A DNA stretch of 64,000 bases from the NCBI RefSeq assembly GCF_000264905.1, contig NW_006763139.1, forward strand, positions 507,949-571,948, in the 5' to 3' direction. The stretch's first letter is position 1. Every line of letters starts with the position of its first letter. The stretch is from Stereum hirsutum FP-91666 SS1 (Eukaryota > Basidiomycota > Agaricomycetes > Russulales > Stereaceae). Below the pieces are notes generated by a model. That model saw nothing but the letters and a program-made list of their open reading frames with translations, had not been told where the DNA came from and searched no databases. The translations under genes and the position numbers were made by a program. Of the stretch, positions 45,106 to 49,082 are shown one piece after another.

Positions 45106-48100
45106 ATTACGATGGCGGATTGTATGCAGAATCCGGAAGGTAAAAGCCTGGGGAAGAATAGGGGTTAGTCTGATAGGAACGCGACGAAAGAAGAAAGACA
45201 TACATCGTTCGACAGAGTCAGCGTTGTTACCCCACCAGTTGGGCATGGAGGTAGTCTTCACCGCGCTGAACGCAATGAACAGGAACAGCATGTTGAAGTT
45301 GTATCCTGTGTCGGCTGCTGCACCCGCCAGATAGGCAAACTTCTTCCAGAACCCATAACGGTCTACCGACAAAACGGTAAGAAACAAAGCATCTGCAGCG
45401 CAGGACAAAGGGCAACATACAGCGCTTGAAGTACATGTGGTTGATCGTTCCGAGGACGAACCAAGTCAGGAGGTAGTTGCTGAGGTTGCCGTAGAAGTTC
45501 TCGAAAGTAGTCGCAAAAATGGGGATGTTGACAAGATCCGCGCGCAGTTTCGGCCACTTCTTATGAATGAGCCACAGGATGATTGGCACAATGGCGCCGG
45601 CTACAAATCCGTAGAGCTATTCCGTGGAAGTGAGCGGCATGGGTGTGAACGGTGTCGGAAAGATGGACGTACCATAGGCGCATACATGGGATCGTCAAAG
45701 AGGAGTTTGGGTCCGATCAAGCCGAACGCGATACCTTGATTGTTGAGCGAAATCACGGTTTGGCCCTGTACAAGATCATAGCGTCACAAAACGTATGTCA
45801 GATATCAAGAGGCGTATATACTTACAGTCCATTGGTGGTTGGGATCGCTCGCGGCTCCGGACAGAACGTCGGCCTTAGTCTTGCACACCCAGAGGACTAG
45901 GGAAGACGACGTTTAGTTTGGCCTACCACGTTGAATTAGGTCGATGGACTGCGATGCTCACTGGTGGCATAATTGATGGGTACACCGATGAGAATACCCC
46001 AGACCTGTGCAATGAGAGTGGCCCGAGGTGGGATATGGAAGTAATGACCGCTAACAGAAGAAAATGTAGGGTAAGCTACCAAGGAACATAGTCGCAATGA
46101 ACTGTATGATCACTTACAGCTTCATATCCGCCAACATGGCCTGAGCCTCGTACCAGCCTGATTACAGATAATAGATTAGACCCAAAGAAAAAGAGAAAAT
46201 GAAAATGAACTGCGTACATTGACCGCTGATGACACGATAACTAAGGGAGCCTACCGGGTGGCGAGAACCGCCGAGGTTGATGGCATAACCGTAGAACAGC
46301 TCGTTGAAATATCCGACTGGAACCTGGTAACCAGTGACGGAGTAGATATAGCCTGTGGAATATGGAGAATAAGTACGAGTGTCCACAGATCCAGCGAAGA
46401 TTCAAACAAAGCGGAGGAAATCCCTTCGAAATTGATAACGAGACTTACTCATGGGCACCACGATCACGGCACCAATCACAAGACCGATATATAGCATATA
46501 TGGTGGGTAATCTTTCGGGGCGGAGACGTTAGCCTTACTTCCAAATATAAGGAGGTAATAAAAACATACACTGCATGATGTGGCGCAGTGACGAATCGAG
46601 AGTCAGATTACGCGTGTAGTGAAGAAGCACAGTTAGTTGAAGCTCATGAAAGGATCAAATTGCATAAGAGGGGCACGTACACTACGGGTATATAAAGTCA
46701 GTCAGCCGTTCTGAATGATGAGATGAAAAAAGGAAAAACATACACTGTACGATTTAGAACAATGATCAAGCGACCAACCGAGTGGGTCCACCGTGTTCGC
46801 GAAGGCAGTGGATTAGTGCAATTTCATAGAACCTATCAGGGACGACGTACGTAGACCAGTGTGGGAGAACGCGATGAGAATGATGAAAGGAACAAGGAAC
46901 AGCGCGAGGTTCCACCAGATGGGTACTGTTGGATATTGCCGAATGATTTGGCTGAGCTATGAAGAAGGCAGAGCGTTAGCGCATTTTGAGGATGGACTGA
47001 AATCAGGATTATTACCTTGTCATCGAAAGCTGCCTTCCGTTGCCATCTCAGCTTCACTGTTCTGTATATCTCCGGGCCCTGGAAGAGAATGCACGAGACG
47101 AAAGCACCGAGCCACGCAACATACGAGAAGAAGTCTGATCAAGGGAACAGGGTAAGAAAATAGCATGGTGCTTGTTGAGAAGATGAAGTGCTTACATCCC
47201 CAACGAAGTTGTGCCGACATCATAGGAGGGCCAACCTCTGCGAAAAGCTCGCTGTTGAGCGAGAAATCGGAGTTCATGAGACTGGCCGTCGGATACTGCA
47301 AACAAAACGAATTGAGACGCATCGAACGAAGACGACAAAATAGATAAACTGACCTTAGTCCCATTGCGCATCCACAACGTCTGGCTCTGAATGGGGTACT
47401 TGTCACTTTCCCAGATACCCATGTAGTAGGAGATGGGAATGAGGATCCATGCAGAGATGACGTAGGATGCAAACATGTTCAATTGAGTCCACCACGGGTA
47501 ATAGATCATGGTAGAGCCAATATTGGACCAGTCAAGGGTGACATTCAGCAGGCCGACACCGCCGAGACCAGAGCCTAAAAATTATGCACACCAATATGGA
47601 ATTTTAAACAAAACGAAAATGCAAGAGTGATAGTGAAACCTACCAAGGAACTGGGCGGTGGAGTTCTTCGTTACCCAGCAAAGGAATGCGAGAGAGGATG
47701 TGAACGGGAAGATATACTATAATGATTGCGGTAAATTGGTCGGTCAATTGAGACATAAGAAGATAGGACGCTAATGTCACGCACCTCAGGCAGGAATTCC
47801 CAAAGGAAGAAGATCAAGATTCCGTACCAGAACACGCGCATCTGGGTCTTTGCGGTTGTGCTCGCCGTTGAAAGAGACATACGCTGTGCCTTGAAAACCG
47901 AGACTTGCTGAAGAGCTAGAGTAGAGAGTCAGTGTCCAATATTCTTAGGCTGACCATCTGGCAGCCACATACTCAATGGGAATCTATGAAGTAAGAAATG
48001 ATCCCCGTGTTAGGTTCAATGAAAACACAATGGACTGCGTGACTTACGTCGTGTTGGGATTCTCGATAATGAACGTCTTTGCCAGCGTGGCATACGAGAA

Positions 48101-49082
48101 CCCAATGAAGACCGCGGACCACTGTCGCAGAAGATGAAATGGTGAATGCTACGACAGCTCAAGAGTAGACGAACCATGAACAAGATAGCGATCCAACCGT
48201 TCATTGCTAGATAAGACGGACTCTTAAAACAATATTATAGATAAATATAGATGAAAGGTCACGCACGATCGTCGTAGAATACAGCCAGAGGGGCAAGGAC
48301 GTAATCGCCCAAGTTATTCGTGGCTCCGGTGTTCGCACTGTGAACCATGCGGAACGAGGGTCGGTCAAGAAATAGGAGACGTAGCATGGTATCCCACACT
48401 CACGCCAAGACGACAGCGACGTGCTCCTTGACAGAGAACTCGCCAGGGTTTAACTCGAACTTGAATCGTCCAAAGCCAACTAACTTCTGTGGAAGGGTGG
48501 CAGCCAGGAATCGACCGAAGAAGAGGGAAGCGATCTGCACGAAGTAGACTGCAAAGTGTATAATAAGTATATCACAGTATGCCATCTCCATATAGAAAGA
48601 CGATGAACGCACTGGAGTACGGGATGTAAGTCGTTCGGAAGAAACCCATTTGCGTGAGCCATCTGCATAGATGTTAGCCATAAGGTCTGTATTTGCGTGA
48701 CAGAAAAACTTACGCGCCAAGGGCGGTGAAGATGGCGGACAGGAAAAAGAACCTCCATGTCAAGACGGGGATGCTGGGATCGTCCTCAAAGTCACACAAC
48801 TCGCGAACAATCTGAGGGAGAACATTGTAGGCAGGATCGTTGTCATCACCTGTATCGTGTCAATCAGCCACGGAGAACATCGACTAGTATGATCGGATAC
48901 TGACCTTTGATTTCGAAGGCTGCCTCATCATCGTATGAGCTGGAATGGTTGTCATACTCCTTGGCGATGGCGACGTCGTCGATGCTCTTCTTGTCGTCCA
49001 AGTACTCCGAGTCCTCGCGGCCGAGGGTCCTCAGGGTGGGCACCGTAGGGTGGTCAACGCTCGTCGTGAGGGCGGCGGACAT
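45106..49082 (-). CDS. OPT-family oligopeptide transporter with single-nucleotide exons
   Basis: Proton-coupled importer of small peptides. ATG 49082 gives an acidic cytosolic N-terminus. OPT landmarks: DFEDDPSIPVLTWR with FFFLSAIFTALGAW, LNPGEFSVKEHVAVVL (the NPGPF-like motif, here NPGEF), ANTGATNNLGDYVLA, FWYGILIFFLWEFLPEY, WSNIGSTMIYYPWWTQLNMF, VPVGYFNELFYGYAI, WYEAQAMLADMKLGHYFHIP, SNYLLTWFVLGTINHMYF and YNFNMLFLFIAFS. It ends RCFYLPDSAYNPPS at TAA 45108-45106. About twenty short introns. Exons include one of 11 nt (47973-47983) and, within the stretch 46512-46850, three of one nucleotide each, which give HTG-L-L-Y-Y-PPY at that point. Three GATA-type sites lie upstream, as in many nitrogen-regulated fungal transporter genes. 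Confidence 0.93.
46512..46850 (-). other. Four consecutive introns separated by 1-nt exons
   Basis: On the minus strand: exon end CTAC at 46851; intron a 46850-46745 (gtacgt...CTAAAT...acag); exon T 46744; intron b 46743-46682 (gtatgt...CTGAC...gtag); exon T 46681; intron c 46680-46571 (gtacgt...CTGAC...gcag); exon T 46570; intron d 46569-46512 (gtatgt...CTAAC...aaag); next exon begins ATTACCC at 46511. C+T+T+T+AT spells CTT TAT, Leu-Tyr. A single 339-nt intron would give CAT (His) and also stay in frame. Confidence 0.75.

What the first reader, a model, noticed from the sequence alone, without database searches (positions are those of the whole stretch)
46512..46851. Three successive single-nucleotide exons in an oligopeptide-transporter gene
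What looks like one 339-nt intron contains three sites where an acceptor AG, exactly one T, and a donor follow directly: acag-T-gtatgt (T at 46744), gtag-T-gtacgt (46681) and gcag-T-gtatgt (46570). This gives four introns of 106, 62, 110 and 58 nt, normal sizes here, each with its own consensus donor, a CTRAY-like branch point and an acceptor. Including the three T bases turns CTA C..AT TAC into CTA CTT TAT TAC (L-L-Y-Y instead of L-H-Y). Both readings stay in frame, so an annotation pipeline would miss the microexons. Single-nucleotide exons are very rare (I recall one plant case). Three in a row would need exon definition without an exon, or stepwise removal of abutting introns.
Basis: partly seen in the sequence, partly recalled or inferred. 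Interest (0 to 1): 0.92.

Follow-up and report, generated by a model that had tools for sequence, protein, structure and literature searches.

The report
Three one-base exons in a row
In a wood-decay fungus, one codon's worth of a transporter gene seems to be supplied by three separate exons of a single base each; related proteins and the splice signals say so, but no RNA has been seen yet to prove it.

Summary
The window lies in Stereum hirsutum FP-91666 SS1 (Russulales). The public model (777 aa) skips them and reads GLHYPPY. Homologs say this is one residue short: of the 67 nearest that cover the site, 62 have exactly the length that the three Ts give, and the Ts restore the conserved Leu-Tyr (GLLYYPPY against GVLYMPIY). 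Of 56 stop-free in-frame products of all GT-AG paths tried, the three-T product fits three homolog profiles best (+6.6 to +7.8 bits over the annotated one); a single path makes it, through four strong donors. Equal peptide score with donors of 8 bits or more arises in 3 of 20,000 shuffles, or 32 of 20,000 with a tandem duplication built in. New here: the stretch is an old 170+169-nt duplication, so two of the Ts are copies of one site; splice-site columns stayed 16/16 identical amid 66% identity; a probable relative keeps the first site. RNA is lacking. I put 0.78 on three real one-base exons. Single cases are published; three in a row I did not find.

The parts
45107..49082 (-). OPT oligopeptide transporter gene, ATG at 49082, stop codon ending at 45107; 22 introns if the 339-nt interval is one, 25 if it is four
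   Evidence: hand-built gene model; Pfam OPT PF03169 E 1.5e-127; product identical to public protein P0001
46851..46956 (-). exon 14, ending ...GGT CTA C
46745..46850 (-). intron I1, 106 nt, GTACGT...ACAG, similar to I3
   Evidence: same length in probable relative P0103
46744..46744 (-). one-base exon T (first)
   Evidence: ACAG-T-GTATGT
46682..46743 (-). intron I2, 62 nt, GTATGT...GTAG, paired with I4 by the duplication
46681..46681 (-). one-base exon T (second), at the border between the two duplicated units
   Evidence: GTAG-T-GTACGT
46571..46680 (-). intron I3, 110 nt, GTACGT...GCAG
46570..46570 (-). one-base exon T (third), copy of the first
   Evidence: GCAG-T-GTATGT
46512..46569 (-). 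intron I4, 58 nt, GTATGT...CTAAC...AAAG; its acceptor scores below the 21 other acceptors of the gene
46449..46511 (-). exon 15, beginning AT TAC CCA CCA TAT ATG
46681..46850 (-). duplicated unit 1 (170 nt: I1, T, I2, T)
   Evidence: aligns to unit 2 with score 16.5; 500 shuffles mean -11.6, largest 2.5
46512..46680 (-). duplicated unit 2 (169 nt: I3, T, I4)
   Evidence: 103 of 155 aligned columns identical to unit 1

Best explanation
The 339-nt interval is four GT-AG introns separated by three exons of one base (T, T, T). The mature mRNA reads CTA CTT TAT TAC (Leu-Leu-Tyr-Tyr), which keeps the length and the Leu-Tyr that near OPT homologs have at this place. Each short intron carries its own donor, branch site and acceptor and is recognised by itself (intron definition). 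Acceptor and next donor lie within a few bases, so two neighbouring introns can hardly be held by two spliceosomes at once, and removal should go step by step; each step joins one T to its neighbour and leaves the remaining splice signals whole. Partial skipping is costly: one T gives a stop after 540 aa, two Ts after 494 aa; only none or all three keep the frame. The arrangement arose by duplication of a unit with intron A, T and intron B. Shown: sequence, splice-site strengths, homolog length, the duplication, the first site in a probable relative. Inferred: the actual splicing, its order, and how the introns were gained.
For: (1) 62 of the 67 nearest homologs that cover the site have the three-T length; 81 of 90 spanning homologs have a residue at the missing column. 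(2) Of 88 in-frame splice paths tried, 77 are stop-free and give 56 products; GLLYYPPY scores 32.7, the next 22.8, the annotated one 19.1 (rank 8 of 56), and one single path makes it. In the full protein it is first of 56 with three profiles, +7.8, +6.6 and +7.8 bits over the annotated product. (3) Equal or better peptide score with all donors at 8 bits or more: 3 of 20,000 shuffles; 32 of 20,000 when a duplication is built in. (4) The three inner donors are as strong as the outer one; 0.6 to 1.4% of all GT in the window score as high. (5) Since the duplication the splice-site columns stayed 16 of 16 identical against 87 of 139 elsewhere (hypergeometric p 0.0009). (6) In P0103 the readable codons fit an I1 of 106 nt without indel and no change at CAG-T-GTATGT (7 letters fixed and the same, 3 compatible). 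(7) Each of the four introns has a branch-like site with no AG before the acceptor.
Against: No RNA was available; the public model does not contain the Ts. Acceptors of I2 and I4 are weak. If weak donors are allowed, 1639 of 20,000 and 3159 of 20,000 shuffles also reach the peptide score, so the peptide alone is not compelling; it is the peptide together with strong donors. Nine of 90 spanning homologs lack the residue, seven of them distant named fungi and one near one (P0039), so the position is not immune to loss. Because both readings are in frame, the Ts are not forced by the frame as in APC11 and CYP621A. Duplication explains why further AG-T-GT sites appeared, which weakens the argument from their number. 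I2 against I4 taken alone is not significant (p 0.23). Conservation in P0103 is mild: 44 of 54 fixed letters in the interior of I1 are also unchanged.
Confidence: 0.78

Rival explanations
1. One long intron of 339 nt, as in the public model. An intron grew by internal tandem duplication; the inner AG-T-GT sites are leftovers of the copied intron ends, and the protein has simply lost one residue.
For: Public model; the duplication is real and by itself places an acceptor next to a donor; both readings are in frame; some distant homologs lack the residue.
Against: 339 nt against 51-96 nt for the 21 other introns; three inner donors as strong as the outer one would have to be ignored, one of them only 58 nt from the acceptor; near homologs keep the residue, among them Basidiomycota, Penicillium and Entomortierella; the inserted letters restore exactly the conserved Leu-Tyr; splice-site columns stayed identical while the rest drifted to 66% overall.
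Confidence: 0.14
2. Both forms are made: a mix of all-T and no-T mRNA, that is, an optional codon, with part of the transcripts frameshifted by one or two Ts and presumably removed by decay.
For: Weak acceptors at I2 and I4; both full forms are in frame, the partial ones hit stops after 540 and 494 aa.
Against: Among the 67 nearest homologs that cover the site only P0039 lacks the column, so a shorter working form has little precedent. No RNA to test it.
Confidence: 0.06
3. Another splice path through weaker sites, with fewer introns, supplies the extra residue.
For: 55 other stop-free in-frame products exist, e.g. GLLVYYPPY or GLLYYYPPY.
Against: The best of them scores 22.8 against 32.7 and its listed path needs a donor of 0.3 bits. 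Full-length profile scores put the next product 5.3 to 5.6 bits behind.
Confidence: 0.02

Closest known systems
Fusarium CYP621A one-nucleotide exon (PMC12940212, 2026; parts 1 and 2 of 3 read)
   Same: Nuclear spliceosomal gene of a fungus; AG-N-GT inside an over-long 'intron'; annotation missed it; argued from homolog length and shown by reads; the authors call it the first in a fungal gene.
   Different: One such exon (G), needed for the frame, in an ascomycete. Here three in a row (T, T, T) in a basidiomycete, the frame is kept either way, the stretch is a duplication, and there are no reads yet.
Plant APC11 and VPS55 1-nt microexons (PMC4674806, part 1 of 3 read; PMC8831610, passages)
   Same: One base between two introns, proved by cDNA and mutagenesis (APC11) or RNA-seq (VPS55).
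   Different: Single exons; in APC11 the base lies 333 nt into a 422-nt interval and is needed for the frame.
Fungal stwintrons, nested spliceosomal introns (PMC9024468, PMC12403724, PMC8469720: abstract starts in the listing; PMC7138796: passages)
   Same: Fungal, packed introns removed by consecutive reactions; in Lipomyces the authors propose duplication of donor sequence within a long intron.
   Different: In a stwintron an internal intron splits a splice signal of the outer one. Here all four introns have whole signals, and a coding base lies between them.
Recursive splicing at ratchet points, zero-nucleotide exons (PMC8605326, start of abstract in the listing)
   Same: Juxtaposed acceptor and donor, stepwise removal of one long interval.
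   Different: Ratchet points lie in long Drosophila introns and, as I recall, leave no base in the mRNA; here one base would stay at each step and the units are 58-110 nt.
Mitochondrial one-base exons (rnl-576/577 group II introns, PMC12308204, passages; placozoan cox1, named there and in the listing)
   Same: Two introns separated by one base; a ratchet-like consecutive removal is proposed for rnl.
   Different: Organelle introns of other types, no spliceosome.

Membership tests
Single-nucleotide exon, nuclear spliceosomal | one base directly between an acceptor AG and a donor GT | tested here: met
   three times: 46744, 46681, 46570
Single-nucleotide exon, nuclear spliceosomal | flanking introns have their own donors, branch sites and acceptors | tested here: met
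   donors strong, branch-like sites present; acceptors of I2 and I4 weak
Single-nucleotide exon, nuclear spliceosomal | the base is needed for the conserved protein | tested here: met
   length in 62 of the 67 nearest covering homologs and the Leu-Tyr motif; 81 of 90 over all spanning rows
Single-nucleotide exon, nuclear spliceosomal | the base is needed for the reading frame (seen in APC11 and CYP621A; not part of the bare definition) | tested here: not met
   all three or none keep the frame, one or two Ts do not
Single-nucleotide exon, nuclear spliceosomal | the base is present in mature mRNA | not testable with these tools
   no transcript of Stereum was recognised among the protein hits
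Stwintron | an internal intron interrupts donor, branch site or acceptor of an outer intron | tested here: not met
   all four introns have whole donor hexamers and AG ends; nested readings were weighed by eye only
Recursive splicing, zero-nucleotide exon | AG directly followed by GT, no base kept | tested here: not met
   a T lies between at all three sites
Introner element | many similar copies in the genome | tested here: inconclusive
   the 339 nt match only themselves in the genome at E up to 10; that search can miss diverged short copies

The most novel reading that the evidence does not exclude
Three successive one-base exons, each between complete spliceosomal introns, at C^T^T^T^A in a basidiomycete gene: four introns at four consecutive nucleotide positions, which the spliceosome must clear one at a time, created by duplicating an intron-T-intron unit or by repeated reverse splicing of the introns into a TTT run.
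Probability: 0.76. Interest if true: 0.88.

Novelty: new variant of a known kind. Interest (0 to 1): 0.82.

Why it matters
Introns at four consecutive nucleotide positions leave no room for exon definition or for exonic enhancers, so they test how far pure intron definition can go and whether the spliceosome works in steps. The gene gives a small natural construct (about 400 nt) for asking in which order abutting introns leave. The duplication offers a visible route by which one-base exons can multiply. For annotation it is a warning: a missing conserved residue next to an over-long fungal intron should trigger a search for AG-N-GT, also when the frame is intact.

Tried and rejected
Considered and dropped: nested (stwintron) readings, weighed by eye only; further splitting of I1 or I3 (by eye on the letters I saw no inner AG-N-GT there); an 'intron' at 47886 (CAGCGTATGT), which I read as exon 9 coding sequence because it runs through in frame and the product equals the public protein. 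The other sites were not tested; for 42077 and 42692 I looked at the sequence and went no further. Paralog pieces in the genome are at most 49% identical in short stretches and were not used for intron positions. One search was a first null run whose threshold was a hair too high (32.69 against the observed 32.67), so it missed ties; one search replaces it. Searches were made to find transcript pieces of Stereum; I recognised none, but they gave P0103. A combined literature search on duplication, intron gain and microexons found no paper; a search on Stereum hirsutum and oligopeptide transporters listed three papers, none of them opened.

Full report
What it is. The window comes from the genome of Stereum hirsutum FP-91666 SS1, Russulales; a wood-decay fungus (recalled). 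The annotated product of the gene is identical over all 777 residues to a public protein of that strain. The gene is an OPT transporter (Pfam PF03169, E 1.5e-127) on the minus strand from 49082 to 45107. I built its model by hand from the sequence: 22 introns, 21 of them 51-96 nt and one of 339 nt.

The observation. Inside the 339 nt, at 46744, 46681 and 46570, a single T stands between an AG and a GTATGT, GTACGT and GTATGT. If these are splice sites, the interval is introns of 106, 62, 110 and 58 nt. Against position matrices made from the 21 other introns, all four donors rank high (above 15 to 18 of 21), the acceptors of I1 and I3 are ordinary, I2 is weak (above 1 of 21) and I4 is below all 21. 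The last acceptor is used in either reading. Each sub-intron has a branch-like site with no AG before its acceptor.

The protein test. The public model, which skips the Ts, reads G-L-H-Y-P-P-Y. In the alignment of the 95 proteins the place reads G-V-L-Y-M-P-I-Y or G-K-L-Y-L-P-L-Y in most near homologs. Of the 69 rows P0002-P0070 (fungal by name, apart from 12 unnamed jgi or lgn rows), two do not cover the site; of the other 67, 62 have exactly the length that the three Ts give, three are one longer, and two are shorter (15 and 16, P0039 and P0046, odd Lentinula models). The rows P0071-P0095 (15 named plants, 8 named fungi, 2 unnamed; 22-42% identical) were left out of that count. With them, 81 of 90 homologs that span the column have a residue there; the 9 without are P0039 and eight distant proteins of 22-28% identity, seven of these eight named fungi such as Tulasnella and Penicillium. 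So the position can be lost, but among near homologs it hardly is. The Ts give GLLYYPPY, which restores the conserved Leu-Tyr. Two metagenome pieces, P0096 and P0097, run through this place without a break; the end of P0097 looks like a run into an intron, so it is probably unspliced DNA and then shows the longer form in the genome itself, with no intron there. That suggests that the introns were gained later in the Stereum line; this is inference.

All other paths. I enumerated every chain of up to five GT-AG introns of 45-400 nt that joins exon 14 to exon 15 in frame with at most 33 extra bases: 88 chains, 77 without a stop, 56 products. The three-T product is first (32.7; next 22.8; annotated 19.1, rank 8). 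Put into the full protein and scored with three profiles (44 closer homologs, 21 more distant ones, and 67 together) it is first each time, 7.8, 6.6 and 7.8 bits above the annotated form. The 44 are P0002-P0053 less eight that I dropped as short, misaligned or distant; the 21 are P0048-P0070 less two; the first two sets share P0048.

Chance. Two null models, 20,000 draws each, with at most 12 extra bases. A: interior shuffled with dinucleotides kept. B: a shuffled 170-nt unit copied in tandem at 35% divergence with unit ends kept. If any GT and AG may be used, 1639 (A) and 3159 (B) draws reach the observed peptide score, so the peptide alone proves little. With all donors at 6 bits or more it is 37 and 125; at 8 bits or more, as observed, 3 and 32. 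Four or more introns with donors of 6 bits in frame and without a stop occur in 1 and 29 draws.

Duplication. Units 46850-46681 and 46680-46512 align end to end (score 16.5; 500 shuffles: mean -11.6, largest 2.5), 103 of 155 aligned columns identical. I1 against I3: 1 of 300 shuffles as good globally, p 0.023 locally; I2 against I4 alone is not significant (p 0.23); the other four pairs show nothing. So the first and third T are copies of one site and the second marks the border between copies. This lowers the surprise of finding three, but adds evidence: the donor, acceptor and T columns are 16 of 16 identical, the rest 87 of 139 (p 0.0009; ten of ten if the GT and AG letters are set aside). 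Selection on the inner sites of both copies would explain this; in one long intron they should drift. The optimal alignment was used, which may favour the end columns a little.

A probable relative. P0103, 157 aa from an unnamed contig (source lgn), reads like an unspliced translation of the same gene from a near relative: exon 13, an intron, exon 14 in another frame, then I1 and 46 of the 62 nt of I2. I1 has the same 106 nt without indel, and at CAG-T-GTATGT seven letters are fixed by the amino acids and the same, three compatible, none changed. In the I1 interior 44 of 54 fixed letters are the same, so this support is mild. It does not reach the second and third T.

How it would work. Fungal introns are mostly recognised across the intron (general knowledge). 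Here acceptor and next donor lie within a few bases, so two neighbours can hardly both be engaged; removal should be stepwise. Any order works on paper, since each intron owns its signals. One T in the mRNA leads to a stop after 540 aa, two to a stop after 494 aa, so selection should favour all or none, and the near homologs say all. For the origin there are two routes, both inference: tandem duplication of intron-T-intron-T, which adds two coding bases and needs a two-base correction, perhaps the shift that left the odd AAAG acceptor of I4; or repeated reverse splicing of the introns into a TTT run, which keeps the frame at each step.

Known and new. One-base exons of nuclear genes are in print for plant APC11 and VPS55 and for Fusarium CYP621A (PMC4674806, part 1 of 3; PMC8831610, passages; PMC12940212, parts 1 and 2 of 3), and in mitochondria (PMC12308204, passages). 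Searches for such exons, alone or in a row, list no paper that I could recognise as two or three successive one-base exons in a nuclear gene; only open-licence papers are held, most listed papers were judged by title and start of abstract, and I opened five. Longer microexons in a row are known, for example three in RPS24 (start of abstract) and a 5-nt beside a 12-nt one in rice (PMC8831610, passage). The finding is therefore a new variant of a known kind. It stays a prediction until RNA is read.

Noticed in passing
window 46512-46518: The acceptor CCGAAAG of the last sub-intron scores below the 21 other acceptors of the gene, which would fit a recently moved splice site.
   Followed up: partly
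window 47973-47983: Exon 8 of the same gene is only 11 nt (ATTCCCATTGA), between introns of 64 and 57 nt: a further, ordinary microexon.
   Followed up: no
P0103 (157 aa, source lgn): What looks like an ORF call on unspliced fungal DNA gives readable intron sequence of an unnamed probable Stereum relative; such spurious proteins can serve as intron data.
   Followed up: yes
P0031, P0034, P0038, P0039, P0042 (Lentinula raphanica models): Several L. raphanica OPT models differ just after the VLPM stretch or lack residues near this site, perhaps annotation errors at neighbouring introns.
   Followed up: no
G000 C1:3693283-3709580 and C8:1214571-1319212: Stretches with several further, distant OPT matches in the same genome.
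   Followed up: no
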